The notes below the pieces were generated by a model. It ran no database searches. It was not told where the DNA came from and worked only from the letters and a program-made list of their open reading frames with translations. Positions 11,230 through 37,550 of a stretch of 44,172 bases of DNA are shown in pieces (positions within the stretch are counted from its first letter, which is position 1; the number at the start of each line of letters is the position of its first letter). The DNA comes from Muribaculaceae bacterium (GTDB taxonomy: Bacteria; Bacteroidota; Bacteroidia; Bacteroidales; Muribaculaceae): NCBI GenBank assembly GCA_024400935.1, contig JAKSLZ010000015.1:1-44172 (forward strand), given 5' to 3'. A program made the position numbers and the translations under genes.

Positions 11230-14200
11230 TCATTTAGACATGATTGCAAACAACAGGAAATTGACATCAGCAATATCGATGTCGCCGTCGTTATTCACAT
11301 CGGCGCGTGCCCTATACTGCTCTACATTGTCATACCCCATCATGAGGCCTACAACGATGTTCACGTCAGCAACATCCACATCGCCATCCTGATTAATGTC
11401 GGCGGGATTGCCAGTCGAGCCTTTAACCACGGTGAGGGCCTTGCGGGCCGGTGTGGTATTCTCGTTGACATCGGTGGGAACAGAGTAGATACCCACCTTG
11501 CTGCCACCGGCAATGAGGTTGCCACCATAGTCAAATGCCATCTGGTAGATGTACTTGCTACCATCAATTGCGTCGCAGTCAAATTCTGTGTTATAGGCAA
11601 GTGACGGAGTGTTTCCATTCCAAGTGATGTCAAAGAACTTGAGCGTACCAGCTGCATCGTTGATAACGAGAGTCTTGCCGTCGTTAGAGATTGCAAATCC
11701 CGAACCGCCCGAGCTTGTAAGGTAACTGCTTATACTGCTATCAGAACCCGAGTTGTAGAGCACATTGCCGTTCTTGTCGACATAGACAAGTGAGGGCACG
11801 GTAGCTGTGTTCTGTCCTGCAGAACGTGTCTGCGCCACCCAGATATTGCCTTCATCATCGGCAATGACATTGCCGTTGCCATTGGCCTGCAGGCTACTGA
11901 TGTTGTAGTTGAACGACGGTGCCTGGTTCCAGTATTCCTTTATAGAACCGTCGGCATTGCCTATGTCGTAGCGACTGACGATATTGCCCATATCCTCGTT
12001 GTAGACATACATCTTGGTGCTCGCACCTGTGCCCTGAATCCAAACCGAAGGAGTTGAACTTGCCACGCTTGTACCGCTTGCGTTAGTGAGCAGACCGCTG
12101 CTTGCGCGGGTAAGGAATGTGCCGTCGGCATTGCGGAAGAACGACTTGAAGCCTGCACTGAAGTCAGCAGGATTGGCAACAAAAACGCCCGAAGTGGGAT
12201 CACCCCAGTCAGGAACATAAACTTTGCCCTCGCCATCAATACCGATGCGGTAGTTGCTGCGGAAGACATTGCCGTCATCACGCTTCTTTATCACTGTTGA
12301 ATTGATTCTTATTCCATCGGGATCATAAGCATAAAGACCATTGCTTGCCGATGCTGTTCCGGCACGGTCGGCTACATAGAAGCTTCCGAAGTACATGCTC
12401 TCGGGATTCTTGTCAATGGCAACGAAAGCACGAGTAAACGAGAAATTAGAGAAGTCATTGAGGCGCTTGAACTCAGTCACTTTATATCCCTTGAGTTTCA
12501 CTGCCCAGTTAAGGGTCTGTCCGGCATCACCGGGCAAGTCAGTGGCCTTGAATGTAGCACTGTTAGTTCCCTCAACAATGTCGTTGAGAGGCAGTGTACC
12601 CACCTCAGTGCCGCTCTGCGCGTCATAGAATACAAGGCTAGCTTGAGTTGCGTCGTTGTTGGCAGTGAACGAGAACGTGTAGTTGCCGCCATCGGCCTCG
12701 ACATCAAGGTCATAAGCATAGATGCCCTTGACTACAGTGCCGGCGGGAGGCTCAGGATTGTCGTTAACCTTAGTTGCAAACTTGATGATGCTGTTGTCAC
12801 CTGTGAGGTAAGCATAGAGGTCGTCGCCGTCGGCCCACGCGCCAGCTGCGCTATAGGCAGCCGAAGCCACTGGCGAAGCAGCGTCGATATCGGTATTAAC
12901 CGTATTGACAAGCGATGCCCTGTTGAAACCATCGGTGATGTCAATAAACTTAATGCCCTGCACGGTACTTGTGCCATAAGGAGCTACCATGAGTTTGTGG
13001 TCCTTGTAATCCAAGAAACTGAAGTCAGTACCACGTGCGCCATGCGATGTTGCCAGGTAAGTATAAGCCGTGGGAACACCTGCAGCTGCAGTGGGCATGG
13101 GGAACTCGACAATAGTACCGTTAGAACCTCCCATAACATAATTAGTGCCGCTGAGGGGTGACACCGCAAGGAAGAGTTTTCCGCCCTGAGCAGGATCGCC
13201 CAGTGTAACGGCATTGAGCGTGGCATTAGTGTTGACATGCCAAGTCTTGGTCACTGCACCGTTAGCGATAGCCACATTGGTCACGCGCATAGCACGACTG
13301 TCGCCCGAGGTAACGCCCACAATGGCCACAGTGCAGTTAGAGGCTGTGCCGTTGACTGCCATGGCATATCCCATGTCGGCATTATAGTAGTTACATGAAT
13401 TCTGTGTTGTAAAGAACTGTGCAGGGGCAGCATCTAGGCTATTCCAGATGTAACCATAAAGCGTGCCCTGCTGATTGCCGCTCTCGACAAACGATGCGTC
13501 AAACGAGTTGCGAACGCTTGAAACGCTCACCAGTTTCCCATCCTCAGTAAGGGCGATAGAACCAATCTGGTTGTAGAAACCAGGATTGCTCTCGTTGACA
13601 TAAATGCCTGCGGTGCTGATGTTCTTAAGAACTTGCTTGGTAGTGTTGTCCACCAGATAGAGGTTAGCATTCTTGCCGCTGTGCGTGAGCACGATGGTGT
13701 TGTCGCCCTGCTGCAGTGTCTGCGCAACGGTTCCTGTAATTTCGCCGTAAGTGGTAACAGGTTCCTGGATAAAGGCGAACTCTCCGAGCGGTTCTACAGT
13801 GCCGGCATTGAGATGCAACTTGGGATAGGTGGTTGCATTGGCAGTCACTGTGATTTCGGTTGATTTGAGCGTGCGGTATCCAGTGCAGCTTGCCTGGAGC
13901 TCATAGGTTCCGGGCTCCACATCAAAGAATGCAAATACACCGTTCCACTCCTGGTCAGTGGTATAGGTCTTGACCACAGTGCCGTTCTTGAGCAGCTTCA
14001 CGGTAGCGCCATTGAGGGGCTTGAACTGGTCATCGGTTCCCTCTCGATAGCCATAGAGGCTGTGAGTCATCACCTCCTCGGCATCTTTCACGGTACCCAG
14101 CACAGCACCTGTGGTGAGCTGCGGGAAGCCAAAGTAAGCGCCGATGCCGCGTGCCTCGCGCAATCCCTCCTCGCGGTCGTAATCGAAGTTGAGGGCACGG

Positions 14201-14901: not shown

Positions 14902-14913
14902 AGCTGCACGTGT

Positions 14914-15822: not shown

Positions 15823-15970
15823 TTTTTAAATTGTAGATTTTAAGAAATCATCCGTTTTGGTTTATAATATCATTTATTTTGAATGTGTAAAATTACAAAA
15901 TACAATTGGTATATACAAAATTTATACAATATTTTTCATTACAACACGTTCTAACACGCAAATAAACTAC

Positions 15971-16003: not shown

Positions 16004-16036
16004 CGACTTTGTATCATTAAGATTCTGCTTAATCAA

Positions 16037-17878
16037 TTAGCTGCCCAGCACGATGTTGAGCAATGCATTGACGTCTGAGATGTCGACTGTGCCGTCATTG
16101 TTGATGTCGCCACGGCCTGCATAAACATCCTCGCCACCGAGAACAACGTTGAGAACGGCGTTCACGTCTGAGATGTCGACGGTGCCGTCGTTGTTAACGT
16201 CGCCGGGAGTTACAACGGGATCATCCTTCTTCTCGCCCTGAGACAGCTTGTAGACGATATATGCTCCGGGGATGTGGATCTTCACGTTAGCCTCACGGTA
16301 GTTAACGCCTTCAGGGAGAGCGGCTGCTGTCAGTGTAACGTTGGTCACGCTAGTCCACTCGCCGTTTTCCATCTCGTCGGCAACTTCTAGGCCGAGCCAC
16401 TCGGGCAGGTCGCTGCCATCCTCAAGAGTTACTTCCATCTCCTCAGCAGGGCTGTAGGTGTACATGGGGATTTCAACAGTCTCGCCTTCGACTGCAACGT
16501 TCTTCTCGCCTGTCTCGGCAATCAGGTTCCATGTGAGATAGGGATGGGCAACCTCGGCATAGATTGAAATACCGGCCTTGCGCTCGCCTGAAGTGAAGAA
16601 GTTGTTGAGGCCCTGATACTTGATAGAACCATCGCTCTGTGTGCGGCCCATGTAGCAATGCTCACCGAAGCCTTCGTCATAGAGGTCAGTACCCTGTGTG
16701 AGGGTGAAGTCTGAGATTGTGCTGTTGTTGTAGCCGGTGAAAACTACCAGAATGGGGAAGTCGATTTCGGGCTCAACCATGAACTCAAGTCCGCTGCCAT
16801 CGTCGGGAGCAATCAGTTCAAAGGGAAGCATACCGCTTGTGATACCTGCACTGGTAAATTCGCTGGGAACAATAGTGAATGTACCCTCGGCCAACAACTC
16901 GCCAGGTTCAGCTACAACCGATGTTGTTTCGCTATACTGAGGCATCTCATCGAGCTTGTAAACCTTGACCTCGAGGTCACAAGGATCATTGTTAGCAAAC
17001 GCGAGGTTCTGGAATGCGACACCCACACGGCGCAGCAAGTAAGGATGCTGAGGTTTCTCAAATGCCATAGCCAGCGCATCGATGCCTGAATAGTTGCGGC
17101 CAAACCATTTACCTGTAGTGCCACCATCGGCATCCTTTGCACCCGATGAATAGGTACCGCCAGCAAGGTTGGTTGCGTCGCGGTTAGTGCTTGCTGCACG
17201 GAACTTGGGAGTGCACCACATGCTCTGGTCGGCAGTGTTAGTGAATGTGGTCTGATAGTCAACGCGGGCAATATAGCGTGAACGATATTCCTTATTCACA
17301 GCTTTACTGGTACCCGAACCGGTAACCGACCAACCATTAATAGTGTAGCTGTAGGTTCCTTCGCTACCTGTTGCAAACAGGCGGGGAACTGTATCGAGAG
17401 TCATCACGCCATAGTCCACATCAAGTGTGGGGCCTGAAGCCGAAAACTCCTCATGCGCTTTTGTATTACGGTTATACAGGAAATAAGTCCAGTCATAAGA
17501 GCTCACCTCGCCCATGTTGATGCAATTAGGCTCATAAGTCACTGTGCGGAAGGGCCAGCCCATGAGGTAAGGTGAATACTGTGAAGAATACTTGTAGTTA
17601 TTGTTTTCCTGGCTTGCACACAAACCATAGAAAGCTCCGGCAGGACGCTTGTAGAAAGCGCGTGGTGTTCCATCGCCAGCCTTGGGAGCGACCTTGCGTG
17701 CAGCCACCTGGCCCTGTGTGGCCATCTGGTCAAACTGTTCTACTGCAAGGGGCATCATTACAGAAGCATCTTGCTGTACTGCTTGTCTTGTTACACTCAT
17801 CTCTGAGCGAAGGCCACCGTTGGCCATCGCTGTTGCGGCGCATAACGCAGCCGTAGTTAAAAGTAGACTTTTCTTCAT
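16037..17878 (-). CDS. Secreted protein of unknown function with C-terminal dockerin
   Basis: A 613-residue product with a signal peptide (MKKSLLLTTAALCAATAMA). I do not recognise the body (about 70-545), which is rich in Tyr, Trp, Asn and Thr and predicted beta; the segment DLPEWLGLEV near 490-500 resembles Ig-like domains. Residues about 553-613 are a dockerin with two near-identical calcium loops, DVNNDGTVDISDVN and DINNDGTVDISDVN, each followed by a hydrophobic helix (AVLNVVLGG; ALLNIVLGS). There is no T9SS sorting tail, so export is by signal peptide and surface attachment, if any, would be through the dockerin. It has its own promoter (17943-17973) and terminator, so it is monocistronic. 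Confidence 0.8.
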   Translation of the reverse strand: MKKSLLLTTAALCAATAMANGGLRSEMSVTRQAVQQDASVMMPLAVEQFDQMATQGQVAARKVAPKAGDGTPRAFYKRPAGAFYGLCASQENNNYKYSSQYSPYLMGWPFRTVTYEPNCINMGEVSSYDWTYFLYNRNTKAHEEFSASGPTLDVDYGVMTLDTVPRLFATGSEGTYSYTINGWSVTGSGTSKAVNKEYRSRYIARVDYQTTFTNTADQSMWCTPKFRAASTNRDATNLAGGTYSSGAKDADGGTTGKWFGRNYSGIDALAMAFEKPQHPYLLRRVGVAFQNLAFANNDPCDLEVKVYKLDEMPQYSETTSVVAEPGELLAEGTFTIVPSEFTSAGITSGMLPFELIAPDDGSGLEFMVEPEIDFPILVVFTGYNNSTISDFTLTQGTDLYDEGFGEHCYMGRTQSDGSIKYQGLNNFFTSGERKAGISIYAEVAHPYLTWNLIAETGEKNVAVEGETVEIPMYTYSPAEEMEVTLEDGSDLPEWLGLEVADEMENGEWTSVTNVTLTAAALPEGVNYREANVKIHIPGAYIVYKLSQGEKKDDPVVTPGDVNNDGTVDISDVNAVLNVVLGGEDVYAGRGDINNDGTVDISDVNALLNIVLGS

Positions 17879-18492: not shown

Positions 18493-21400
18493 TTATTTTG
18501 CAAGGCTCATGTTCAAACTGATGCCGTAGTTAGTGTTTGTGGTGGGATAAGCAGTTGTCGACACGAGCGGAGTATTGACCTGATGGTCAAAGTAAGCACC
18601 CATGGTGATGCGCTTGCTCACCTGGTAGTTTGCAGTGAACTTGACTGCAAACGTGCGTGTGCCGCTAGTGGGCTGTGCCATGTTGTCAGCAATCTTGCGT
18701 ATCAGGGCTGTGTTATTATTGAACTGCAGGTCAAAGTTGAGCGTGAGGTCGTTGCTCACACCTTGCTGCTTACCGCCCTTCATCTTGAGCACGCTGTTGA
18801 AGTTAGCAATCTTATAACCTGCACCTATCACAAATGATGTGGTGCTAGCTTCTACCACCTGACCGGCGGCACTGTTGAGGGTGAGTGTGCGCTGGTCGCG
18901 ATACTCACAGTTGAATGTCATGCTGTTATTAAGCGTAGCATTGATACCAATGAGCGGCGCAAACTTCTCAGTCACCGTTACCGACGAGATGTTGAATGGT
19001 GATGACGGGATAGCATTTCCTGTGAGTGCGTCCTGAGTAAATCCAAGGCCACCGCCTATGTCTAACCAGTCAGTAAATGAGTTGAACGAACCCACCTGAT
19101 AAGTACACTGGTAAGCATGGGTGAGAGTGAAGCTCTTGAAGTACTGCTTGAAGAACGGGAGTTTTGACAATCCGTCATAGGTGATGCGCCAGTTAGGAAG
19201 AATCTCCTTTAACGCCGGGAACGGATTAAGGGTTACCTTAGATGCCTTCTTGCCCGAGTAAGCAGCCATGAATGCAGGGATGAGGACATCGCTGCTCATC
19301 ATGTTCACGCCACCCAGTTCAGGATCATATTCCTTACCGGCAGCCATTGTGCCACGCAAGAATCCACGGTCAGGATAAGTTGTACCAATGTACTGGTTCT
19401 GCAGACGCTGGGCCACAATGGGAATATTAGCCAGGAACTCATCGAAGACGCCACTGTGATATCCGTTGCCGGCATTTCCTCTCGAAGCAAATGCCGTCGC
19501 TATGGCCATGTGGGTCTTAGTGTAGCTACCGGCATACAGTGTAGTCATGTCTTCATACATGAACTGCATCTGGCTGGTGCGGTTGTCGGTGCGATTTCCG
19601 GTCAAGGTCACCTTGAGACCCTTGATGGGCTCGAGCTGTACCTCGGCACTGAACTCCTGCGTCTTGGCAAACAGGGCCGGAGTGGTCATTGACTGGTCGC
19701 CCAGCAGCCAGCCGCGCTCTTTTGCCTTCTCAACATAGTGGTCACCAGCAAAACCAAACGCAAAGTCAAGGCCCGGAGCCATCACATCATAATGGGTGGT
19801 CTGGCCAAATATATCGCCAATCTCGGGTATGAACTGTGGCAACGACAAGCTGTTAGTGTTTCGCCATTTCACACTCACATTGCGCACACTCATGAGCATG
19901 CGTGTAGTGTACTGGCCCAGTTCACTCCAGAACGACTTGTCCTCAGTGAGGTCCTCGGTCACAGTGAACTTGATACTCTTGTCACCAGTTGTGAGGATCT
20001 CAACATTATTGTTGTCACGCACCTTATATTTAATAGTGAATGCCTTGTTGTCGGTCGTGGTGGCTGTCACCTTCACTTTCTTAACGTTCAGGTTATGCTT
20101 GATCACAAGCACCGAGTCGCTGTCGCTGTGCAACTTGAATGTCCTCTGGAACTTCTTGGCTTTCTTGTTCTTATTCTTGTCCATGGGGGTATTCTTGTTG
20201 GAATTGCTGGCAAACCTCTTGTTCACTGCCTGCAAATAAGGAATCTTATTGTACAGCGTCTCCATGTTGAGACGTGTGTCAATATTAAGCGACGACTGGC
20301 TGGCAATAGTATTGCCCGACGACACGTTGTCAATAACAGTTCCGCGGTCCCAGCGATAAGTGGCATTGTAGGTCGCTGACGCATTGATGAACGACAGAAT
20401 GGGTATTGCGCTGAACGGAGCTTTATAGCTTGCAGTGAATGTCTGGTTATAGGCCCACGGTGTACCCAGGTCCTTGATGCTCTGCCAAACAGAGTCACGC
20501 CAGTCGCGATAACGGTCGGGGAACAGTTGCTTGTTCACCTGGCCTATGGGCTCAAGGATGTGAGCCGTAGTATTGCTGTTGAACGACATTGACAACGACT
20601 TAGTGAAGTTCCAGCTCAATGAGAACTGGCGGTCCCACAAGAAATTCTTGCTCACTGCAACCGGCAGTTCAACGTCAATACCGGTCTCGTTGCGAGTTTG
20701 CTGCTCATAGTAGTAACGGGACATGTTAGTGTTGAACGCAAGATTTGTGGGCAACCAGCGGAATTCCCATTCGCGGAAGAACTTCATGTTCTTGTTCTTG
20801 GCGTCAATGAACTTCTTGAGCGGTGCAAACGGCTTGATATATGGCGACCAGTTATACTGGAAGCTACCACGATAGTCATTAGTGTTCTCATACACATTGT
20901 CAGGATCGTTGAGGTGCTGCTTGTTAGATGAGTAACTGAATGTAAAGTTAGCAGGATCCCAAGGCATTGAGTTCTTGCTCTTGACATCAAACTTGAGTCC
21001 CGACACGCTGAAACTCTTCACCGTGCGACGAGTCTCGGCAAAGGCGTTGATTGAGTCACGCTGGTGCTCATTGGCACAAGCATCCAGTGCATCTTCAAGC
21101 AGGATATCCTGGTCCAGAGGATTGTACTTGGGCACCGTTGTCTCATTGCTATATGAGTAGTAGACGGGGGCATGCAGCTTAGCCTTCTCGGGAAGGAATC
21201 GGCCCACATCACCCTGCACTGCCACATTGTACTGGTTGTAATTGTCCATGCGGCGCTGAGTCAGGCTCTCATTCACTCCACCAAATCCGTATGTCTCTTT
21301 ATGGAAGCCCACATTGACGGTCGCAATGTCACTCATGTTGAGTGTAGCGTTGGCCTTAGCAGCCCAACCGCCGTCATTGTCAAAGTCAGTGACGCGCATC

Positions 21401-26001: not shown

Positions 26002-26079
26002 TAATTTTGTGCCCAAAATGTGCACTAATCAAATGCTAAAAAAACTTAAAAAACACAATCCACCCCCTCACGATGATTT

Positions 26080-26684: not shown

Positions 26685-28838
26685 TTAATGATTCACAATT
26701 ATTTTATTAGCATAAATGCCTTTACTGGTGGCGGTGCGCACCATGTAGATGCCATCGCCAAGGGTTCCGCTCAGGTGCACATGAGGATTGTCGCCTGACA
26801 CTATAGCTTGGGCATGCACCCTACCCTGCATGTCATAGACTGTTACGGTACCATCGCCTTCAATTCCCACGAGATCGAAATCACCGTCGCAGGGATTGGG
26901 CGTGATTTTCAATTTGTGCAAAGTTATCTCGTCAACACCAGCCTGCTGCAATAAGTATTCAACGCCGGCCGCTACATTGATTTTTCCGGCACCCCACATC
27001 GACGGTGCCTTGGCGGTGTAAGCGTCTTGCACTGATGTTGCCTTGATTACATCTCGCACTTGATCGGGACCCAGCCGGGGATTCTGCTCCAGCCACAATG
27101 CAATGGCTCCCGTCACAACCGGTGTCGACATGCTGGTGCCATACTGCGAGCCATAGACATAATACTCGCCGTCGACAGTTACACCAGGAGCACGACACGC
27201 AGTGACAGTGGCGCTCGTATGGTCGTATCGGCTAGCCGATGACACAAGCGAGAATCCGGGAGCAGTGACGTCGGGACGTGCAATACCGCGCACGTCAGGA
27301 CCGTAGCCCGAGAAATAAGCGATATCGTTGAGCACCGCACGGGAATTAACATGCAGCGTTCCGTCCTCAAGAGGCATATATTTGCGCGAGCAGTAGGCAC
27401 CCACCGAGATGGCACTGTCGCCGCACGCGAGTTCGTTAATCGACATTGACTTCATTCCTGATGTCATGTAACTGATGCCGTTGCGGGTGAAAACGAGCCC
27501 GTTACCTGCCCATGTGGTCACACGGTCGCCAGCTGGTGCCGTGAGTGCCATGCCCAGGGCTATGTCGTCGCTAACCGGCAGCACATTAAACTCTGCAATG
27601 GTGTGGTAGTGACCGTTGCAGTCTTCTACGGCAGCAGCAGCTTCCACTTTTCCGTCGGCAAAATAACGTGCAAACTCCGGGTCGGTATTTGCGTCAATCA
27701 CCACAGTCTCTTCAATGCTCTCACGCTGTGTAATTTCCTTGCTATACACTATCTTGCCGCTTGACTTAGACACCGCAGTAATCGCCAGCGTGTGAGGCTT
27801 AGCTGTTGACGACCACGATGACACATATCCGGGAATCCAACCGTCGTGGTTGCCATAAGGGGCAATGCATGTGTACAACGTGTCGTTGTTAGTCTTGAAA
27901 TTACGGTCGATGACATGCGAACGGTGAGCATTGTTGGCGGCTGAAACTACACAGATGCGCCCTGGTCCCGATACTTCGTCAAAGAGGCGGCACAGCATCG
28001 AGGTGCCGTCGTGCGGACCGTCCTCGCTGCCTATGCTCATATTGATAACCACCGGTTTGTTTTCGCGGCGTGCCACGTCCATGATATATTTCACAGAGTT
28101 TGCCACGTTGACGTCGGTGAGCATGCTGTCGGGCATTGCGCACACCACCAGCTCGGCCTCGGGGGCCACACCGTGCATGCCGTTAGCCTTATAACTGCCG
28201 GCGGCAGTGCCTGCAGTGTGGGTGCCGTGCGACATTGTGGTGTTGTCGGCAGTGAGGGCTGAGATCTGGGCTGCAGTATTGTAATGGCTGCCCGGCAAGG
28301 TATATCCATCAACCACAGGGGGCGTTCCCGTTGCGTCACAGGGCAAGTAAGCCGCTATGACACGGCTGCGTCCATGCTCGTCGCACAAGTTGATATGGTT
28401 AAAGTCTACGCCAGAGTCTATCAGTCCCACAATCACGCCCTTGCCGGTGTAAGGCAATCCACTAAGTGTGAGTCCCTCGTGCACAGGGTCTACGGCCGAG
28501 AGGATGCGGGCACTGTCGTTAGTAAGCGTTAGGCGCTGAGCCAGCGACACACATTTCACGCCGCTTGCCGCCACAACACTGCCCACCACGTTTTCAGGAA
28601 TCTGAACTGTGACAATATCACCGGTCACAGTGTTTACAATGGCTCCGGCAGCAAGCATATTGTCAATAGCATCATTGTCACTAACGGTCACCATCGCCTG
28701 CACCATGTCGTGCCCCGTTGATTGTACTCTATTGGCGCCACCATGCGACAGTGCCAAGCGTGAACGTGCAGTCAGCACCTGCGCAGCTACCACGCCCACA
28801 GCGGTGATTAACAGTATTATGCTAAGTAAGCGTCTCAT
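26685..28838 (-). CDS. Secreted subtilisin-like (S8) protease with T9SS sorting domain
   Basis: The 717-residue product has a signal peptide (1-20), a propeptide-like region to about 115 and an S8 peptidase domain with an intact triad: GLIDSGVDFNH (Asp141), SHGTHTAG (His204) and YGTSMSTP (Ser569); Asn302 in SAANNAH is the oxyanion residue. A beta-rich insert of about 150 residues lies between the Asn and Ser motifs, as in related Bacteroidales proteases. Residues about 640-717 (LKITPNPCDGDFDLV, VTVYDMQGRVHAQ, GDGIYMVRT, KIIVNH) are a type A T9SS sorting domain. Its ATG overlaps the upstream protease's stop (ATGA), so the two are translationally coupled. The pair precedes ruvA and sprA. Substrate unknown. 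Confidence 0.92.
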   Translation of the reverse strand: MRRLLSIILLITAVGVVAAQVLTARSRLALSHGGANRVQSTGHDMVQAMVTVSDNDAIDNMLAAGAIVNTVTGDIVTVQIPENVVGSVVAASGVKCVSLAQRLTLTNDSARILSAVDPVHEGLTLSGLPYTGKGVIVGLIDSGVDFNHINLCDEHGRSRVIAAYLPCDATGTPPVVDGYTLPGSHYNTAAQISALTADNTTMSHGTHTAGTAAGSYKANGMHGVAPEAELVVCAMPDSMLTDVNVANSVKYIMDVARRENKPVVINMSIGSEDGPHDGTSMLCRLFDEVSGPGRICVVSAANNAHRSHVIDRNFKTNNDTLYTCIAPYGNHDGWIPGYVSSWSSTAKPHTLAITAVSKSSGKIVYSKEITQRESIEETVVIDANTDPEFARYFADGKVEAAAAVEDCNGHYHTIAEFNVLPVSDDIALGMALTAPAGDRVTTWAGNGLVFTRNGISYMTSGMKSMSINELACGDSAISVGAYCSRKYMPLEDGTLHVNSRAVLNDIAYFSGYGPDVRGIARPDVTAPGFSLVSSASRYDHTSATVTACRAPGVTVDGEYYVYGSQYGTSMSTPVVTGAIALWLEQNPRLGPDQVRDVIKATSVQDAYTAKAPSMWGAGKINVAAGVEYLLQQAGVDEITLHKLKITPNPCDGDFDLVGIEGDGTVTVYDMQGRVHAQAIVSGDNPHVHLSGTLGDGIYMVRTATSKGIYANKIIVNH

Positions 28839-30844
28839 TTAGTCAACAATATGTTTAACAACGTATTGACATCAGTAATATCTACAGTAGTGCCACCGGC
28901 AACAAATGCCCTGCCGTCATAGCGATCGGCATTGTCGTTGCCCAGCATTATGTTTACAAGTATATTCAGGTCAGTGACATCCACACTCCCGTCTCCGTTC
29001 ACGTCACCCTGCGGTTTGCTGTAGCGCTGGAGTATCAGTTGGATTCCGGCATAGGCGTCAATCTCGCCATGAGGCCCACTCACAACAGTGGTGTAAGGCA
29101 TGGACATAGCAGTCTCGGCCATCACATCCTTGATTTGCTCAATAGTGAGCGAGGGGCATGCCTGCAGCCACAACGCTACGATACCGGCAACGCAAGGAGC
29201 CGACATTGAAGTGCCGTTCTTGGTATACCAATAATGTGCATTGTTGTCATTGTCATAGGTGCGCTGCGAGTAGGATGTCTTGCTGCAGTTGAAGCTGCTC
29301 ACGCTCGACACTACGTTCACGCCGGGGGCCACAATGAACGGATGCACCTGGCCGCGCAGGTCGGTTCCGTAGCTCGAGAAGCGGGCCATGCCGCCCATCG
29401 TGTAGCCGTTGGTATAGGTACGACCCACGACAGGATAACTTGTGCGCCCGGCACATGCACCCACCGAGATGCTGTAATCGCCTGTAGCCATATCGCTGAT
29501 TGAGAATATGTCATTGCCGTCGCTGAAGCCCGCCAGGCCGCAGCTGCTGAAGTTGGCATCACCGTTCACGTCCCACGCGTCGACCACGGTGCCGTCCTCA
29601 CCTCTCACGGTAAACGATAGATAGCAGTTCATCACGCTGATGTTGGCCGAGTGGTCCACATAGATGTGATAACGGCCATTAACGGGATCCACGCCCTGCT
29701 GTATCTTGATATTGCCGCTGGAATACTGCGCCCACTGGGCATCACGGGCAAGATACAGCGTGCTGTCGCTGCGCACAGGGCCCGATGAGCAAAGGACAGT
29801 ATTTGTGGCATAGTTATAAATGTTATATTCGATAGTGAGCGGTTTGCTGTCGCGCGACCAGATGTCTATTTCTGAGCGGTTGCCGTTTGATGTCATCATC
29901 ACGCTCGACAACTGCTTGTCGGCAGCAGTGAACGCCTTGTTGAGATAGAGGCTTGTCGCACCTTCGTTACCGGCCGAGACAACAAATATGGTTCCATATT
30001 TTTTGTTCAGCTCTTCCATGGCACGTGCCATGAATCCGGTGCCGTCGTGCGGACCGTCGTGGTTGCCCAGACTCATGTTTATCACACAAGGCTTGCCCAC
30101 GCTTGCTGCATAGGCAGCGATGTAGCGCATGCCCAGCACCACGTTATAATCCTCGAGATTGTCGTTGGGAATACCCACATACGCAATTTCGGTCCCCGGA
30201 GCCATGCCACCATACGCGCCCACCATAGTGCCAGCAGCAATGCCGGTGGTGTGGCATCCGTGCGACATAAACTTGTCATCGGTAGTAAGCGCTGCAATCT
30301 GGGTGGGTGTGGTATAGTCTTTTCCGGGCAACAAGTCACCGTCAACAAGAACTCCGTCGCCTTTCTCTACAGGATGGTAAACGCGGCTGATGCGGGTATT
30401 GCCCTGAGCGTCCTTAAATGCCATGTGGTTGTAGTCGATGCCACAGTCAATCATGCCCAACACCACCCCACTGCCGTCATAGGCGCAAGGAAGATTGGTT
30501 CCGGCGAGGATGGGATTGACATGGGTAACACTGCGCGACGAGTCGCACAGCAGCTTCAAGTGCGACGGTGCACTGACACCCTTAACGCCCTGCAGCTGTG
30601 CCACACGTTTTATCGACCGTGCGTCACCACTCACCAGCGCCATGCCGTTAAAGCGCGACTCAACCTTAACGCCACTTGCGCTAAGCGCGTCCATGCTAGC
30701 GTTGTCCATAGTCACCCACGCATGCAACGCCTCGCTGGCACTTGCCTCGCTAATCGCCCCGCGCATCACCGGCGACATCTTATTTTGACCATAGGCCACA
30801 ACACCCACAACAAGCGCCACAGCCAGTAAAACCACTTTCTTCAT
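28835..30844 (-). CDS. Secreted subtilisin-like (S8) protease with C-terminal dockerin
   Basis: From the ATG at 30844 the product has 669 residues (a longer frame to 30931 runs through the promoter and is rejected; 30850 is possible). The signal peptide is MKKVVLLAVALVVGVVAYGQ. The S8 triad is complete: GMIDCGIDYNH (Asp133), SHGCHTTG (His195) and NGTSMSAP (Ser546), with Asn293 in SAGNEG. Residues about 612-669 are a dockerin-type pair. Loop 1 (DVNGDGSVDVTDLN) is intact. Loop 2 (FVAGGTTVDITDVN) has lost the first acidic calcium ligands. The domain order parallels the next gene, but the sorting tail is replaced by a dockerin. It heads the operon protease-protease-ruvA-sprA-nudix. Confidence 0.9.
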   Translation of the reverse strand: MKKVVLLAVALVVGVVAYGQNKMSPVMRGAISEASASEALHAWVTMDNASMDALSASGVKVESRFNGMALVSGDARSIKRVAQLQGVKGVSAPSHLKLLCDSSRSVTHVNPILAGTNLPCAYDGSGVVLGMIDCGIDYNHMAFKDAQGNTRISRVYHPVEKGDGVLVDGDLLPGKDYTTPTQIAALTTDDKFMSHGCHTTGIAAGTMVGAYGGMAPGTEIAYVGIPNDNLEDYNVVLGMRYIAAYAASVGKPCVINMSLGNHDGPHDGTGFMARAMEELNKKYGTIFVVSAGNEGATSLYLNKAFTAADKQLSSVMMTSNGNRSEIDIWSRDSKPLTIEYNIYNYATNTVLCSSGPVRSDSTLYLARDAQWAQYSSGNIKIQQGVDPVNGRYHIYVDHSANISVMNCYLSFTVRGEDGTVVDAWDVNGDANFSSCGLAGFSDGNDIFSISDMATGDYSISVGACAGRTSYPVVGRTYTNGYTMGGMARFSSYGTDLRGQVHPFIVAPGVNVVSSVSSFNCSKTSYSQRTYDNDNNAHYWYTKNGTSMSAPCVAGIVALWLQACPSLTIEQIKDVMAETAMSMPYTTVVSGPHGEIDAYAGIQLILQRYSKPQGDVNGDGSVDVTDLNILVNIMLGNDNADRYDGRAFVAGGTTVDITDVNTLLNILLTK

Positions 30845-30863
30845 AAGCATCACTTTTAACTTA

Positions 30864-30871
30864 CAAAGGTA
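30864..30871 (-). promoter_or_regulatory. -7 box of the protease-ruvA-sprA operon
   Basis: TACCTTTG on the minus strand fits TAnnTTTG. Transcription would start near 30857, which excludes starts upstream of 30850. The -33 box is not clear. Confidence 0.5.
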
Positions 30872-30954
30872 CAACTTTTTAACGAAAAACGAAGAACAAA
30901 GAACGAAAAAACTGCACCCACGCTCCCACAACAGTCTCCCACAGAGGCACAGAG

Positions 30955-31188: not shown

Positions 31189-31851
31189 TTACTTGCCCAA
31201 GATCAGGTTGATGACCGAGTTGAGGTCGCTCATGTCAACCACGCCGTCTCCGTTTACATCAGCCCCGGGATTATCGGCAAATTGTCCCTTGCCCAGGATA
31301 ACATTGATGGCAATGTTCATATCACTCATGTCAACCACACCGTCACCATTCACGTCGCCGGGCTTAGTGTCGGGCTGCTTGTTCACATTACAGGTCTCGT
31401 CGGCAGGATAGAACTGCTTGCCGTCGGCTGCTGCCAATTCGGTGTTTCGCACCTCGATGGTGTGGGTTCCAGCAAAGTCGGTCGACGCAACCAGTGTGAT
31501 GGTTGCCACTGCGCCAGTGTTAAGCTTAAACGGGTTGAGGTCGGTGGTATAGGCAATCACACGCACTGCGCCGTCAGACATAGCACTGCCGTCGATGGTG
31601 TGGCCTCGAGTAGCACGAGTAGTGAGGTCGATGTAATAGAAATCGTCCTCATCAATCTTGATTGACAGTCCCTCGGGCAGATAGATGTCGGTTTGAAAAC
31701 CCGTCACGGCCGTGGTATTGTCCATATTGAGCGACACCTCCATGGTCTCTCCTGCTTTTATCTCAAAGTCATCAATCCACATGCGGTAGTCGGCAGCATT
31801 AGCCGCCACAGCCACGAGTAGAGAAAGGATATATATAATGCTTCGTTTCAT
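31189..31851 (-). CDS. Small secreted cohesin-like plus dockerin protein
   Basis: The 220-residue product has a signal peptide (1-19), a cohesin-like beta-sandwich (about 25-148) and a dockerin (165-220). The sandwich has the cohesin pattern: AGETMEVSLNMDN, TGFQTDIYLPEGLSI, VRVIAYTTD, NTGAVATITLVAS and ADGKQF. Two modules in the neighbouring 1860-residue protein share FQTxIYLP, an RAxRxHT turn and VRVxxY. The dockerin loops DVNGDGVVDMSDMN and DVNGDGVVDMSDLN are intact and nearly the same. A protein made of one cohesin and one dockerin has the layout of an adaptor scaffoldin. It follows the large gene by 116 bases and ends in a terminator. That the sandwich binds dockerins is inference. Confidence 0.75.
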   Translation of the reverse strand: MKRSIIYILSLLVAVAANAADYRMWIDDFEIKAGETMEVSLNMDNTTAVTGFQTDIYLPEGLSIKIDEDDFYYIDLTTRATRGHTIDGSAMSDGAVRVIAYTTDLNPFKLNTGAVATITLVASTDFAGTHTIEVRNTELAAADGKQFYPADETCNVNKQPDTKPGDVNGDGVVDMSDMNIAINVILGKGQFADNPGADVNGDGVVDMSDLNSVINLILGK

Positions 31852-31899: not shown

Positions 31900-31967
31900 T
31901 AATTACTTATCTGCGTAATCTGCGAGAGGCAATAAACAAAGAGTTAAACGATTAAACTTTTAAACCT

Positions 31968-34900
31968 TTATTTGACTACCACCTTCTTGTTGCCAACGAG
32001 GTAGAAGCCTGCGGGGAGACCCTGTGTTGCAGTCTCGGGGTTAACATTGGTGCGGATAAGTTGTCCAGCGGTGTTATAGACATTCACAGGAGCGTTGTCG
32101 CCCGTGGTGATGTCGTTGATACCGCTCAACTCAGTGCTAAAAGTCATCTCGTCAAACTCATGCTCGCAACCGTTAGGCTCGGCAAAGAGGGCGTTGGTCA
32201 TCTCAATGTTACCATGTCCCTTCACGTCAATGAGCAGCAGGTCGCCGCTGTTGCCAGCGAACACAGCATTGTCGCTTGCATAAGCAAGCACGCGCACTGT
32301 ATTGCCGCTTATCTGGTTCATCGCAACGCTGTGGCTGCGTCCTGCGCGGTCACTCAGGCGAGCCCCGGTAATCTCCATGCCAGCGGGCAGACCGAGGTCA
32401 GCCTGGAACGCAGTGTAGTCAGTGCTGCCATCCAGAGCAATAGCAATAGTGCGACTACCGTCACCACGGCTTTCAATGACATTTGCACAGAGTGCGTCAC
32501 CACCCATCACGCGCTGAACTTTGAACTTCTTGTCAGGAACTTGGGTTCGGCCAAGAATCACATTAGCAGTAAGTACGATGTCACCAATGGAGATTTCTCT
32601 ATCCTCGTTTAAATTAGCCGACTTGTAGTGGAACGGGTATGGATCCTGAAGCAGGATGTATCGAGCCTCAGCGATGATATCGGAGATACTTACTTTCTTG
32701 TCGTGGTTAGCATCACCAGGGACATAGTAGCAACGCAGTTTTATTGTAGTATCGTCAATATCAAGTTCCTCTCCATCGGGTTTAGCCAATTTGCTATTGT
32801 CCAATGTTACATAATATGTATCTATATCCGAATCCCAGTCACTCTTCAGGGTAAAGTAGAACAAATCACCATCATTACCGCTATAAGCCTTGCTTGTGTT
32901 AGAATAAGATAGTACACGAATAGCCTTGCTTGCTACCGCTGTAGAGGTTGAACCTATAGTATGGTTGCGGCTTGCACGACCGCTAAGGCTTAATTCGGGA
33001 ATTCTATCCTCATCTATTGCAAAGCTAAACTCATCGGGCAAATAGATTTCGGTCTGGAAACCAGAAATCTCCATTGAGTTCCTCATCTTGACCGGAACAG
33101 TCACATCTTCACCGCCGAAGAAGTCTATAGTTTCTGCGTAAAACTTCTTTACAATCACTGTAACAGCACACGAAGCCGACAAGTTTGTTCCATCGGTAGT
33201 CGTTGCTGTGATTGTGGTCTCACCAAATGTCACGCCAGTTACCCTACCGTAAGAGTCAACAGTAGCAATTGACGGATTCGCCGATTTCCATGTTACGTTT
33301 TTATTGGTAATATTATAGGGAGTGATGTTTGCATAAAGTGAAGTACTCTTTTCTTCTTCAACAGTAATATGGTCATTATTCAAGGTAATCCCCGTGGCCT
33401 TAACAATTACCGTTACCTGGCAATATGCCGAGAGGTATGTACCATCGGCAGTTGTGGCTGTGATAGTTGCAGTACCGCCGTCTACAGCGGTAACCTTACC
33501 ATATTCATCAACCCTGGCGACAGATGTGTTGCTCGAACGCCATGTCACACTCTTGTCAGATGTGTTGCTCGGGGTCACTGTCGCAACAAGAGTCTCACTT
33601 TGGCCCTTAAGAATAGACAATGTTGACTTGTTCAGGCTGATGCCCTTTGCCTTCATCAACACGGTCACCTTACAAGTCGCCGTAAGGTTAGTACCATCGG
33701 TTGTAGTTGCTGTGATATTCACAGTCCCCGGTCCAATCGCGATGACTTTACCATTATTATCAACCTTTGCGATAGTCGTGTCACTTGACAACCATGTCAC
33801 ACCTTTGTTAGAAGTGTTTTCAGGAGTCACTGTAGCTACAAGTGTCTCAGTTTGCCCATCATTAAGGGTTAATGAGGTCTTATTCAAACTGATGTTTTTA
33901 GCTCTCATCAACACTTTGACTTGACAACTTGCTGAGAGATATGTACCATCAGTTGTTGTTGCAGTGATGGTAGCAGTTTCGTTGGTCGGAATAGCAATCT
34001 TAATGTTGGGGCGGTAAGTGACTGTACTGTAGTTTGACGAATATGAAACCGATCCGTAGTCAGTGTTGCTGTCACTTCCCCTGCGCAAACAATAATTGCC
34101 ATCAGCAGGTGCAGAAGTATATTTATATTTCAACTCACTATTATAACTACTACTTTGCCTACATACTACAACCACCAAATTGTCTTTTCCATTATAATTA
34201 AATGGAGTATTCAGGGTAATTGTTTCCCAACCGGTGCTACGTCCTAATGTTGGTGAACCCGAATAAACAAGAGTCAAAGCGCTTGAAGAAACATAGTCAT
34301 CGGCATTGCTGAACAATCCCGACTTGTGTCCCATATAGATTTTAATGCTTGCACTATGATTTGAAGCAGCTCCAACCTCATAAGCGATAGACTTGATTTG
34401 ACCTGAACCACCTAACTCTGCAGCCTTGTATATCGTTTGGGTGGTAGAGTTTTTGTCGTAGTTTCCATATGGAACATAATAGTTTGACTCTATTCCCGAA
34501 CCGATAACGACATTGCTTACAGTTTCGCCAGGAGCAATGCCTGTTACATTTCCATAGCTGTCAACGGTAGCAATAGCCGAGTTGCTTGTAGTCCATGTAA
34601 CATTTTTATTTGTAGTATTTGAAGGAGTGAAGTTAACTGTTAATTTCTCTCTTTGACCATCATTGATTGTCATTGTGGTCTTATTCAGAGAAATTGCCTT
34701 GGCTTTCATGAATACAGTAACAATACATGATGCCGAGAGATTAGTGCCATCTGTTGTAGTAGCTGTAATAGAAGCCGTACCAGGTCCAATGGCAGTAACT
34801 ATTCCGTACTGGTCTACTGTGGCTATGGAACTATTGCTTGACAGCCATGCAACAGTTTGGTTGTAGGTACTGCTGGGGGTTACAGTAGCCTTAAGCGTCT

Positions 34901-37550
34901 CGCTTTGACCATCATTGAGGCTTAATGAAGTCTTATTCAGGCTAATGCCTTTGGCAGTCATACGAACTGTCACTTGACATGCTGCCGATAGGTTAGTACC
35001 ATCGGTTGTGGTCGCAATGATAGTTGCTGTACCTGGAGCAATGCCTGTTACCTTACCATAGTTATCAACAGTTGCAATATCACTATTACTAGATCTCCAT
35101 AATACATTTTTTTCTGTTGTGTTACTTGGAAATATTGTTGCTACAAGAGTTTCAGTCTTTCCGTCGTATAAAGACAGAACATTTTTGTTTAATGTAATTT
35201 CTTGTGCGACTATACCGACTGTAACTTGACATGATGCCGAGAGATTGGTGCCGTCGGTAGTAGTTGCAGTGATGGTTGCCGTGCCGAGAGCGACGCCTGT
35301 TACCTTGCCGTTGCTGTCAACTGTTGTGATGGCGGTGTTGCTTGACTTCCATATCACGTCTTTTTTGGTGGCATCACTGGGAGATACAATTGCTGTGAGT
35401 GTGCAAGTTGAACCCTTCTCAAGTGTGAGTGTCGTTTTGTCAAGGCTTATGCCAGATGATGTAACTCTAACGGTTACATTGCAGGTGGTAAAAAGATTGC
35501 TTCCATCGGCAGTTTTTGCCGTGATTATCGCACTGCCAGACCCTACTGCGGTTACAACGCCGGTGCTGCTCACTGTTGCAACAGAAGTGTTGCTTGAAGT
35601 CCAGGTGACATTCTTGTTTGTCGCGTCGGTTGGCGACACGGTTGCTGTGAGGGTACTTGTTGAGCCTTTTTCAAGGGTGAGCGAAGTCTTGCTAAGGCTG
35701 ATGCCTGTAGCTGTAATCTTTACCGTTACAGAGCAGCTTGCACTCTTGTTGGAGCCGTCGGTGGTAGTGGCAGTGATTGTCGCACTACCTGGCCTTATTG
35801 CGGTTACAACGCCGGTGCTGCTCACTGTTGCAACAGAAGTGTTGCTTGAAGTCCAGGTGACATTCTTGTTTGTCGCGTCGGTTGGCGACACGGTTGCTGT
35901 GAGGGTACTTGTTGAGCCTTTTTCAAGGGTGAGCGAAGTCTTGCTAAGGCTGATGCCTGTAGCGGAAATTTTAACTGTTACCGCACATGAAGCACTCTTG
36001 TTGGAGCCATCGGTGGTAGTGGTAGTGATTGTCGCACTACCTGGCCCTATTGCGGTTACAATGCCTGTGCTGCTCACTGTTGCAACAGAAGTGTTGCTTG
36101 AAGTCCAGGTGACATTCTTGTTTGTCGCGTCGGTTGGCGACACGGTTGCTGTGAGGGTACTTGTTGAGCCTTTTTCAAGGGTGAGCGAAGTCTTGCTAAG
36201 GCTGATGCCTGTAGCGGAAATTTTAACTGTTACCGCACATGAAGCACTTTTGTTGCTGCCGTCGGTTGTAGTTGCCGTGATGATCGCAGATCCTCCCCCC
36301 GCTGCTGTCACTACCCCCGTGCTACTAACTCTAGCCACCGATGTGTTACTCGAAGTCCAATTTAGAGTTTTGTCAAGTGCATCGACCGGTAATATAGTTG
36401 CTGTTAATGTCTTGCTAGTGCCTTTTTCCAATGTCAAAGAAGTTGGAGTAAGAATAAGGCTTGTTACCTTTCCTAAATCATCCGCGATTGTGTTGAAATA
36501 TTTTTTCCAGTCTGTATTTTCATATCTGCTTACAGCCCCAGATGGTACATGCAGTATAGCCCCCTGCTTAATGCCTCTAAAGCTATCATCAATAGTAGGA
36601 GGTGTTGTTGCGAAGGAATAAACATCCGCAAGACTAAAGCAATTTTCGAACGCCCACCACCCGATAGAAGTGACAGAATTGCCGATAGTCACTCTGGTGA
36701 GATCAGAGACACAGAACGCCTCTTTTCCGATAGAAGTGACGGAGTTGGGGATAATGACGTTGGTGAGATCTTTGCAGCCCATGAACGCCGAGTTTCCGAT
36801 AGAAGTGACGGAGTTGGGGATGGTGGTGTTCTTGCAGCCGTATAAGAGAGTATTTGTGGTAGTTTCAATAATGGCATTGCAATTGTTGCGAGAATCATAC
36901 TTATTGTTGCCCAGATCAACAGTAATGCAGTTGAGCCTGTTGCAGCCACCGAATGCATAGCTTCCGATAGAAGTGACGGAGTTGGGAATGGTTAGCGAAC
37001 CGTTAAATCCGCTGCAGCCCGAGAACGCAGATCCGCCGATAGAGGTGACGGAGTTGGGGATGTTGAGCGAGCCGGTGAATCCGCTGCAGTTATAGAACGC
37101 CGAGTTTCCGATAGAAGTGACGGAGTTGGGAATGTTGAGCGAGCCTGTGAGCCCATGGCAGTACATGAACGCATAGTCCTCGATAGAAGTGACAGAATTG
37201 CCAATAGTGACGCTGGTAAGACCAGAGCAGCGATTGAACGTATAGCGGCCGATGACAGTGACGGAGTTGGGGATGTTGAGCTCGCCTGTGAACCCGCTGC
37301 AGCCATCGAACGCCTCGTTTCCGATAGCAGTGACGGTATAGTATTTTCCGTTGTAGTAGACTCGTTCAGGTATTTTTAGATTTCCACTGCCCCCGTTGTA
37401 GTTAGAGGAAGATCGGTCTGTATATGTTACTGTCACAGACTTCCCATCGCTATTCTTGTTATAGGCGATGCCATCGACCATAAAGTGGTAGGCGCTAGCT
37501 GATAGCCACGCGGTTAACAGCAATATGGAGATAAAAAATAGTCGTTTCAT
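31968..37550 (-). CDS. Giant surface protein: BspA-type LRRs, 11 Ig-like repeats, two cohesin-like modules, dockerin-like pair, T9SS tail
   Basis: A 1860-residue protein. Order: signal peptide (1-20); BspA-type leucine-rich repeats (about 50-345) of the form IPNSVTSIGNSAFYNCSGFT; eleven Big_2 Ig-like repeats of about 84 residues (about 360-1465; motifs SLTLEKGSTSTLTATVSP, VTWTSSNTSVATV, GSATITATTTDGSN); cohesin-like module 1 (about 1468-1610); a degenerate dockerin-like pair (DANHDKKVSISD and NLNEDREISIGD, about 1610-1665); cohesin-like module 2 (about 1670-1807, AFQADLGLPAG, RAGRSHSV); and a type A T9SS sorting domain (about 1813-1860, VNVYNTAGQLI, GLPAGFYLVG). Ig repeat 8 is split by a 182-residue insert. 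LRR and Ig modules suggest adhesion. The cohesin-like modules and T9SS tail suggest a surface scaffold. It follows the lipoprotein by 22 bases. Confidence 0.88.
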   Translation of the reverse strand: MKRLFFISILLLTAWLSASAYHFMVDGIAYNKNSDGKSVTVTYTDRSSSNYNGGSGNLKIPERVYYNGKYYTVTAIGNEAFDGCSGFTGELNIPNSVTVIGRYTFNRCSGLTSVTIGNSVTSIEDYAFMYCHGLTGSLNIPNSVTSIGNSAFYNCSGFTGSLNIPNSVTSIGGSAFSGCSGFNGSLTIPNSVTSIGSYAFGGCNRLNCITVDLGNNKYDSRNNCNAIIETTTNTLLYGCKNTTIPNSVTSIGNSAFMGCKDLTNVIIPNSVTSIGKEAFCVSDLTRVTIGNSVTSIGWWAFENCFSLADVYSFATTPPTIDDSFRGIKQGAILHVPSGAVSRYENTDWKKYFNTIADDLGKVTSLILTPTSLTLEKGTSKTLTATILPVDALDKTLNWTSSNTSVARVSSTGVVTAAGGGSAIITATTTDGSNKSASCAVTVKISATGISLSKTSLTLEKGSTSTLTATVSPTDATNKNVTWTSSNTSVATVSSTGIVTAIGPGSATITTTTTDGSNKSASCAVTVKISATGISLSKTSLTLEKGSTSTLTATVSPTDATNKNVTWTSSNTSVATVSSTGVVTAIRPGSATITATTTDGSNKSASCSVTVKITATGISLSKTSLTLEKGSTSTLTATVSPTDATNKNVTWTSSNTSVATVSSTGVVTAVGSGSAIITAKTADGSNLFTTCNVTVRVTSSGISLDKTTLTLEKGSTCTLTAIVSPSDATKKDVIWKSSNTAITTVDSNGKVTGVALGTATITATTTDGTNLSASCQVTVGIVAQEITLNKNVLSLYDGKTETLVATIFPSNTTEKNVLWRSSNSDIATVDNYGKVTGIAPGTATIIATTTDGTNLSAACQVTVRMTAKGISLNKTSLSLNDGQSETLKATVTPSSTYNQTVAWLSSNSSIATVDQYGIVTAIGPGTASITATTTDGTNLSASCIVTVFMKAKAISLNKTTMTINDGQREKLTVNFTPSNTTNKNVTWTTSNSAIATVDSYGNVTGIAPGETVSNVVIGSGIESNYYVPYGNYDKNSTTQTIYKAAELGGSGQIKSIAYEVGAASNHSASIKIYMGHKSGLFSNADDYVSSSALTLVYSGSPTLGRSTGWETITLNTPFNYNGKDNLVVVVCRQSSSYNSELKYKYTSAPADGNYCLRRGSDSNTDYGSVSYSSNYSTVTYRPNIKIAIPTNETATITATTTDGTYLSASCQVKVLMRAKNISLNKTSLTLNDGQTETLVATVTPENTSNKGVTWLSSDTTIAKVDNNGKVIAIGPGTVNITATTTDGTNLTATCKVTVLMKAKGISLNKSTLSILKGQSETLVATVTPSNTSDKSVTWRSSNTSVARVDEYGKVTAVDGGTATITATTADGTYLSAYCQVTVIVKATGITLNNDHITVEEEKSTSLYANITPYNITNKNVTWKSANPSIATVDSYGRVTGVTFGETTITATTTDGTNLSASCAVTVIVKKFYAETIDFFGGEDVTVPVKMRNSMEISGFQTEIYLPDEFSFAIDEDRIPELSLSGRASRNHTIGSTSTAVASKAIRVLSYSNTSKAYSGNDGDLFYFTLKSDWDSDIDTYYVTLDNSKLAKPDGEELDIDDTTIKLRCYYVPGDANHDKKVSISDIIAEARYILLQDPYPFHYKSANLNEDREISIGDIVLTANVILGRTQVPDKKFKVQRVMGGDALCANVIESRGDGSRTIAIALDGSTDYTAFQADLGLPAGMEITGARLSDRAGRSHSVAMNQISGNTVRVLAYASDNAVFAGNSGDLLLIDVKGHGNIEMTNALFAEPNGCEHEFDEMTFSTELSGINDITTGDNAPVNVYNTAGQLIRTNVNPETATQGLPAGFYLVGNKKVVVK
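33974..34527. repeat. In-frame 546-bp insert bounded by an 8-bp direct repeat
   Basis: CAGTTTCG occurs at 33974-33981 and 34520-34527. The 546 bases from one copy to the next encode 182 residues (starting VSNVVIGSGIESNYYVPYGN) that interrupt Ig repeat 8 between GIAPG and TATITATTTDGT. The segment is AT-richer than the N-terminal half of the gene. Confidence 0.75.
35560..36330. repeat. Near-identical 252-bp tandem units encoding Ig-like repeats
   Basis: The phrase GGTGCTGCTCACTGTTGCAA (or a one-base variant) recurs with a 252-bp period at about 35562, 35814 and 36066, with a diverged fourth unit near 36318. About 150 bases per unit are almost unchanged. This encodes Ig repeats 1-4 of the giant protein. 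Confidence 0.85.

What the first reader, a model, noticed from the sequence alone, without database searches (positions are those of the whole stretch)
11230..37550. Possible non-cellulosomal cohesin/dockerin surface assembly next to the T9SS translocon gene
Seen: four secreted proteins end in two-loop dockerin domains (1223-residue amidase, 613-residue unknown, 669-residue protease, 220-residue protein). Two proteins contain three related cohesin-like modules, one of which also has a T9SS sorting tail. sprA lies between them. Known: cohesin-dockerin pairs build cellulosomes, and non-cellulosomal forms exist in other bacteria. Inference: the T9SS-anchored giant protein is a scaffold that holds dockerin-tailed protease and amidase on the surface. 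No glycoside hydrolase is present, so the function would not be polysaccharide breakdown of the usual kind.
Basis: partly seen in the sequence, partly recalled or inferred. Interest (0 to 1): 0.85.

Follow-up and report, generated by a model that had tools for sequence, protein, structure and literature searches.

The report
Dockerins in place of export tags
A gut bacterium's genome encodes about ninety secreted proteins ending in a 'plug' (dockerin) and a handful of proteins with an export tag and the likely matching 'sockets' (cohesins), and in two protease families the plug sits where relatives in other genera carry an export tag, which hints at a plug-and-socket way of displaying enzymes.

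The parts
31968..37550 (-). P0004, 'gene A': carrier, signal peptide - BspA-type LRR - Big_2 repeats - cohesin - dockerin - cohesin - T9SS-type tail
32724..33155 (-). cohesin module A1 of P0004 (aa 1466-1609)
   Evidence: PF00963 E 0.0147, 16.5 bits, under the 24.1 cut-off; own profile, of which it is a training row; tree
   Evidence: 13.7 bits, under cut-off; class test
32124..32504 (-). cohesin module A2 of P0004 (aa 1683-1809)
   Evidence: own profile, of which it is a training row; tree
31971..32141 (-). T9SS type A-like sorting tail of P0004 (about aa 1804-1860)
   Evidence: TIGR04183 E 0.0077, under cut-off; tail profile E 6.5e-9
31189..31851 (-). P0003, 'gene B': signal peptide - cohesin (31372-31794) - client-class dockerin (31192-31362)
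28835..30931 (-). P0002: S8 protease with C-terminal dockerin (28838-29014)
26685..28838 (-). P0001: neighbouring S8 protease with T9SS tail (26691-26906) and no dockerin
   Evidence: TIGR04183 E 9.1e-10, 38.4 bits, cut-off 23
16037..17878 (-). P0006: 613-aa secreted protein of unknown function with C-terminal dockerin (16040-16207)
11230..14901 (-). P0005: amidase-like 1223-aa protein with C-terminal dockerin (11236-11403)
   Evidence: Amidase_3 only E 0.12; Dockerin_1 22.5 bits, just under cut-off, 29.2 bits in the genome search
18493..26025 (-). sprA, T9SS translocon gene (adjacency probably incidental)
   Evidence: SprA_N E 1.8e-206; 57 of 61 same-genus genomes

Best explanation
P0004 and P0003 are the carrier (A) and adaptor (B) of a cohesin-dockerin display system that is genome-wide in this genus of Muribaculaceae. 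A-type proteins are exported and surface-anchored by the T9SS through their sorting tail and offer cohesins. About a hundred proteins, nearly all with Sec signals, carry client-class dockerins, usually at the C-terminus, and plug into cohesins instead of carrying their own sorting tail. B proteins carry a cohesin plus a client-class dockerin and so can act as adaptors that add sockets. Carriers hold a second dockerin class beside their cohesins, probably for another partner. SHOWN here by computation: domain anatomy, cohesin fold of P0003, recurring A-B order, two dockerin classes, three positional cohesin classes, sorting tails on carriers but not on clients, and dockerin versus sorting-tail replacement between genera in two enzyme families. 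INFERRED: calcium-dependent binding, which cohesin binds which dockerin, surface location, and where the client meets its carrier. The first two rivals below are the two sub-cases of this reading.
Against: PF00963 does not recognise the window modules in the protein scan. Cohesins are few in some genomes (G109 and G122: 4 matches each against 93 and 211 first-look dockerin candidates). Sister-genus genome G001 has 31 dockerins but no cohesin match at E<=1 (85% complete), and its three sampled C-terminal dockerins score as client class. Class exceptions: G122's three internal hits score as B, one G040 cohesin-dockerin protein scores as A, one own carrier-internal dockerin scores as B. The tail profile is not reached at E<=0.01 by 8 of the 20 A proteins of the A-B loci. 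13 of 102 clients have the dockerin further than 6 aa from the end (several are cut by the fetched stretch). Few PF18962 tails is not special to this genus: many other genera also have under 10 per genome without many dockerins.
Confidence: 0.72

Rival explanations
1. Proxy export (a sub-case of the best reading): the dockerin is a substitute T9SS signal. Clients dock in the periplasm on a cohesin carrier, and the folded complex passes through SprA using the carrier's sorting tail.
For: Clients have Sec-type signals (75 of 86 by a rough rule; 6 more matched a loose lipobox pattern but look like Sec signals by eye; 5 none), no sorting tail (0 of 94), and stand where other genera have sorting-tailed homologues; SprA is kept.
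Against: No precedent was found, but only one search listing was made for it; a carrier-client complex may be too large for the pore; cohesins are few in some genomes.
Confidence: 0.28
2. Anchoring only (the other sub-case): clients cross the outer membrane by another route, for example because the T9SS reads the dockerin directly or through vesicles, and are captured outside by cohesins, as in Gram-positive cellulosomes.
For: Known cohesin-dockerin systems assemble outside the cell (established knowledge); Ca. Stygibacter has a CTD-bearing scaffoldin with dockerin-tailed enzymes (PMC8542988, passages).
Against: No other export route for about a hundred proteins was seen, though none was searched for systematically.
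Confidence: 0.4
3. Non-cognate: client dockerins do not bind these cohesins; they act as calcium-stabilised C-terminal caps or bind something else.
For: G001 has many dockerins without a detectable cohesin; the excess of dockerins over cohesins is large in some genomes.
Against: Clients and gene B share a dockerin class; across 139 other-genus genomes the modules co-occur (22 both, 9 cohesin only, 13 dockerin only, 95 neither, counted by hand; Fisher p 4.8e-10), though this is not independent, since both are often in one gene.
Confidence: 0.15

Closest known systems
Ca. Stygibacter (Cloacimonadota) cellulosome-like complex, PMC8542988 (passages)
   Same: Scaffoldin-like protein with cohesins and a CTD for surface attachment; S8, C25, GH18 and GH57 enzymes with C-terminal dockerins; inferred from genomes only.
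   Different: One 3755-aa scaffoldin with CBM2/CBM3 in another phylum; no A-B gene pair, two dockerin classes or tail replacement in the passages read.
Clostridial and ruminococcal cellulosomes (type I/II/III cohesin-dockerin; general features from knowledge)
   Same: Cohesin fold, two-loop dockerins, many clients, more than one dockerin class.
   Different: Here an outer membrane and a T9SS-type tail on the carrier; clients include many LRR proteins and peptidases; no GH5, GH9 or GH48 among the families shown.
Ruminococcus albus and R. bromii: many dockerins, few cohesins (PMC6118326, passages)
   Same: A large excess of dockerins over cohesins.
   Different: Clostridiales, no outer membrane to cross.
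Limousia mucinolysome (PMC12997984, search listing with title and start of abstract)
   Same: A cellulosome-like complex not aimed at cellulose.
   Different: Nothing beyond the listing was seen; no comparison of parts was made.
Dockerins in rumen Bacteroidetes (PMC7480376, PMC6071333, passages)
   Same: Dockerins, and in certain Bacteroidetes species cohesins, reported in rumen metagenomes; the role of the dockerins is called not yet defined.
   Different: No T9SS-tailed carrier, tail replacement or gene pair in the passages read.
T9SS type A sorting domain (TIGR04183 / PF18962)
   Same: Present, if weakly scored, on carriers and on C10/M6 homologues of clients in other genera.
   Different: Not found on clients in this genus, where a dockerin stands in its place.

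Membership tests
Cohesin (PF00963) | Cohesin jelly-roll fold | tested here: met
Cohesin (PF00963) | Score over Pfam's curated cut-off | tested here: not met
   No hit in P0003/P0004 at E<=1; A1 of P0004 16.5 bits versus 24.1 in the genome search; another module of the same genome (C22) 35.2 bits
Cohesin (PF00963) | Binds a dockerin in a calcium-dependent way | not testable with these tools
   No binding assay or complex prediction available
Dockerin type I (PF00404) | Duplicated calcium-loop/helix segments | tested here: met
   Two loop motifs in P0003, P0005 and P0006; one each in P0002 and in the internal dockerin of P0004 (loose pattern)
Dockerin type I (PF00404) | Score over Pfam's curated cut-off (22.9) | tested here: inconclusive
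   P0003 46.5, P0002 23.7, P0006 23.3 over; P0005 22.5 and P0004 13.7 under
Cellulosome | Dockerin-bearing cellulases of GH5/GH9/GH48 | tested here: inconclusive
   None among families shown for 102 dockerin-only ORFs at E<=1e-5; 2 of 27 families of the last list were not shown; the genome is 77% complete
Cellulosome | Scaffoldin with several cohesins plus an anchoring device | tested here: met
   P0004 has two cohesins and a tail that matches the tail profile; a G060 protein has six cohesins and ends in a dockerin
T9SS cargo (TIGR04183 tail) | C-terminal sorting domain on the carrier | tested here: inconclusive
   P0004 under the TIGR04183 cut-off (16.2 versus 23 bits) but E 6.5e-9 with a tail profile from other genera
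T9SS cargo (TIGR04183 tail) | C-terminal sorting domain on dockerin clients | tested here: not met
   0 of 94 clients with a complete 3' end at E<=0.01, 3 of 94 at E<=1

The most novel reading that the evidence does not exclude
In this genus the dockerin is a substitute secretion signal: proteins that related genera export one by one through the T9SS with their own sorting tail instead dock, in the periplasm, on a few cohesin carriers that keep the tail, and cross the outer membrane as carried cargo through SprA. This would be export in trans by the T9SS.
Probability: 0.28. Interest if true: 0.92.

Novelty: new variant of a known kind. Interest (0 to 1): 0.76.

Why it matters
Cellulosome-type assembly is mostly studied in Gram-positive bacteria, and T9SS cargo is usually described as one sorting tail per protein (both from general knowledge). 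Here dockerins occupy the place of the sorting tail in two unrelated protease families of a gut genus, while the translocon and a few tailed cohesin carriers are kept. That makes a direct question testable: can the T9SS export a protein that merely holds on to a tailed carrier? It also gives a candidate display system for about a hundred enzymes and adhesins of gut bacteria whose cultured relative was found in 99% of 295 pig metagenomes (PMC7738495, passage), and two dockerin classes with three cohesin classes that might serve as new pairs for protein engineering.

Tried and rejected
PF00963 as a test of the window modules: no hit at E<=1; replaced by own profiles and structure. The fold listing effectively tests only the cohesin part (rows span residues 18-162), so the dockerin fold was not tested there. 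Link with sprA as a functional cluster: not supported, no sprA, ruvA or P0001 match in the held stretches of 33 related loci (the tblastn also gave an empty list, and one search repeated it with P0003 as positive control). Lipoprotein anchoring of clients: a loose lipobox pattern hit 6 of 86, which by eye look like Sec signals with an inner cysteine. Concerted evolution of B and client dockerins: striking in G040 only (76% within the genome versus 36-53% to clients of other genomes), not general (few clients sampled outside G000). A hidden cohesin in G001: no match with a 40-member profile at E<=1. The second amidase-like gene (38572-39801) as a broken dockerin protein: intact, no dockerin or sorting tail seen by eye. 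The 13-member profile could not seed the collection scan, so a three-member one was used, which biases those 33 loci to close relatives. On re-checking I found that L056, in the training set, is the same contig as G146:C56 of the own genus; one search repeats the class test without it (100 of 103 instead of 102 of 103). The genus of the other 31 loci is not known, so that test is not strictly between genera; the tail tests use the tool's kinship labels and are.

Literature limits: claims about what is in print rest on the listings and on passages, not whole texts, of PMC10266427, PMC8810776, PMC5831590, PMC6118326, PMC12082470, PMC7738495, PMC6071333, PMC7480376, PMC8542988 and PMC6247017. The review of Peer et al. 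2009 on non-cellulosomal cohesins and dockerins was not held and was seen only as a citation.

Full report
WHAT IS IN THE WINDOW. The window is contig C48 of a 2.84-Mb, 140-contig, 77%-complete genome. The closest named match to the 220-aa protein's cohesin is in Candidatus Sodaliphilus limicaballi, 89% identical, so the host is very probably of that Muribaculaceae genus (inference). P0004 reads: signal peptide, LRR_5, eleven Big_2 stretches, cohesin A1, dockerin, cohesin A2, sorting tail.

GENOME-WIDE SCALE. Dockerin_1 has 117 matches at E<=1, 103 over the cut-off by my count. In the stretches fetched round the hits there are 115 ORFs with either module: 102 with dockerin only and 13 with a cohesin (two of the 13, L025 and L032, run off contig ends and may be one gene); 89 of the 102 have the dockerin within 6 aa of the C-terminus. 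The cohesin profile finds 22 modules at E<=0.01, its own 13 rows included. Of 86 dockerin-only ORFs with a complete start, 75 have a Sec-type signal by a rough rule, 6 more matched a loose lipobox pattern and 5 none. Pfam on all 102 at E<=1e-5: LRR_5 33, Peptidase_M6 6, CotH 6, C10 4, GHL10 4, NAGPA 3, alpha-amylase 2, and one each of GH53, GH30, GH18, S8, Endonuclease_1, GDPD, Metallophos and Amidase_3. GH5, GH9 and GH48 were not among the families shown (2 of 27 in the last list were cut).

A RECURRING GENE PAIR. In 33 loci found with the cohesin modules, 20 hold a short signal peptide-cohesin-dockerin protein (B) directly after, and on the same strand as, a large protein whose C-terminal part is cohesin-dockerin-cohesin plus a further tail (A). 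The loci were chosen by cohesins but not by this order. In 12 of these 20 A proteins the tail matches the sorting-tail profile at E<=0.01. The titles label the MAGs Muribaculaceae, Prevotellaceae, Porphyromonadaceae, Bacteroidales or Ca. Sodaliphilus; several name ruminant hosts. A tree of 121 cohesin modules keeps A1, A2 and B apart: for 94 of 98 labelled modules the nearest neighbour from another locus has the same label; the count is 94, 92 and 86 of 98 when neighbours of at least 80, 60 and 50% identity are barred.

TWO DOCKERIN CLASSES. Profiles of carrier-internal (A) and B dockerins were trained on the related loci. Leaving out L045 and L056, which are of the own genus, 100 of 103 own client dockerins score better with B, 5 of 6 own carrier-internal ones with A, 3 of 3 own B-type with B, and 21 of 22 clients of the related loci with B (with L056 still in, gave 102 of 103). 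The genus of the other loci is unknown. So P0003's dockerin is of the client kind, and carriers hold something different. Exceptions: the three internal hits of G122's carriers score as B, and one cohesin-dockerin protein of G040 scores as A.

SORTING TAILS AND DOCKERINS DIVIDE THE WORK. A tail profile from 43 other-genus C10 and M6 proteases hits, at E<=0.01, 8 of the 9 own cohesin proteins that do not end in a dockerin (the ninth at 0.021; P0004 best, 6.5e-9), 0 of the 3 that do, 32 of 41 cohesin-ending and 0 of 23 B-like proteins of the related loci, 0 of 94 clients, and 1 of 147 shuffled tails.

DOCKERIN IN PLACE OF THE SORTING TAIL. With one client C10 protease as query over 149 family genomes I read the tails of the 30 best loci, one per genome: 7 of 7 same-genus proteins (7 of the 10 genus genomes) end in Dockerin_1, 0 of 23 from other genera do; of those 23, 14 match Por_Secre_tail at E<=0.01 and the other 9 look like such tails by eye. 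With an M6 protease: 6 of 6 complete same-genus proteins end in a dockerin (one more truncated), 0 of 20 complete ones from other genera do (three truncated); their tails look like sorting tails by eye and were not run through Pfam. Other paralogues in these genomes were not read. In the window two neighbouring S8 proteases show the same choice: P0001 has the sorting tail (38.4 bits, cut-off 23), P0002 the dockerin. SprA is present in 57 of 61 genus genomes and in 30 of 30 good ones. PF18962 tails number 2-8 in each of the 10 genus genomes, against 12-35 (35 being the number scored) in genera g5, g6, g23, g25 and g27; but many other genera also have under 10 without many dockerins, so a low count is not special, and PF18962 misses weak tails such as P0004's. 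Dockerin expansion is genus-wide in the sample: all 10 genus genomes reach the scoring cap of about 40, with 93-229 first-look candidates.

RESULTS AGAINST. G001, from a sister genus, has 31 dockerins but no cohesin at E<=1 with a 40-member profile, its three sampled dockerins are C-terminal and score as client class, and its C10 protease has a sorting-like tail. It is 85% complete, so a cohesin may be missing or divergent, or dockerins may do something else there. Cohesins are few in G109 and G122 (4 matches each). No binding was tested. Across 139 other-genus genomes cohesin and dockerin co-occur (22 both, 9 cohesin only, 13 dockerin only, 95 neither; p 4.8e-10; counted by hand), but they are often in one gene, so this is weak.

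HOW IT PROBABLY WORKS. Carriers go through the T9SS with their own tail and present cohesins; clients, with only a Sec signal, attach by their dockerin. B adds sockets and is itself a client. Whether docking happens before or after the outer membrane is open. If after, clients need an export route that was not seen here. If before, the dockerin is a substitute T9SS signal and clients are carried through SprA. I put 0.28 on that.

WHAT IS KNOWN. A CTD-bearing scaffoldin with dockerin-tailed peptidases and GHs was proposed for Ca. Stygibacter of Cloacimonadota (PMC8542988, passages), so the basic architecture has a precedent in another phylum. Dockerins in rumen Bacteroidetes are reported with undefined role (PMC7480376, passage), and cohesins in certain Bacteroidetes of camel rumen (PMC6071333, passage), while PMC5831590 reports no cohesins or dockerins in its genome, consistent with other Bacteroidetes (passage), and PMC10266427 names dockerins in Bacteroidota single-cell genomes but a PF00963 cohesin only in a Christensenellales one (passage). 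None of the titles and abstract starts listed speaks of dockerins in place of T9SS tails; most listed papers were not opened. Hence: new variant of a known kind, with a bold export reading that is open to test.

RE-CHECK. On checking this report against the calls I corrected the class-test count and its training set, limited the tail statement for A proteins to 12 of 20, and added the caveats on PF18962 counts and on unread paralogues.

Noticed in passing
G060:C11 (L195:3479-6223) and G135:C10: B-like scaffolds: in G060 a 914-aa protein with six cohesins and a C-terminal client-class dockerin; G135 has a 919-aa frame with six cohesin matches.
   Followed up: partly
L027:6023-7294, L030:7770-10025, L194:3899-5185: Multi-cohesin proteins ending in what looks like a single dockerin segment (one calcium loop) instead of two.
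   Followed up: no
L034:2354-3982, L043:624-1553, L107:4211-4864, L116:2-643, L120:2-622: Some clients carry the dockerin soon after the signal peptide instead of at the C-terminus (the last three are cut by the fetched stretch).
   Followed up: no
window 38572-39801 (+): Amidase_3 plus CarboxypepD_reg protein resembling the start of P0005, intact, ending without a dockerin.
   Followed up: partly
window about 33981-34526 (-), P0004 about aa 1009-1190: A stretch that does not read like Big_2 interrupts the Big_2 repeats of P0004.
   Followed up: no
window 7196-8956 (-): Serine/threonine kinase domain with a sub-threshold Lcl_C-like C-terminal part.
   Followed up: no
G166, G170, G177, G180, G181, G194, G197: Short extra SprA_N-like frames of about 480 aa, four of the seven with one in-frame TGA, beside a longer sprA in the same genome.
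   Followed up: no
G001 (genus g2; L190, L191): Dockerin-rich genome with no detectable cohesin; its three sampled dockerins are C-terminal and mostly carry a DVSIL-type motif after the loops.
   Followed up: partly
   Followed up: yes
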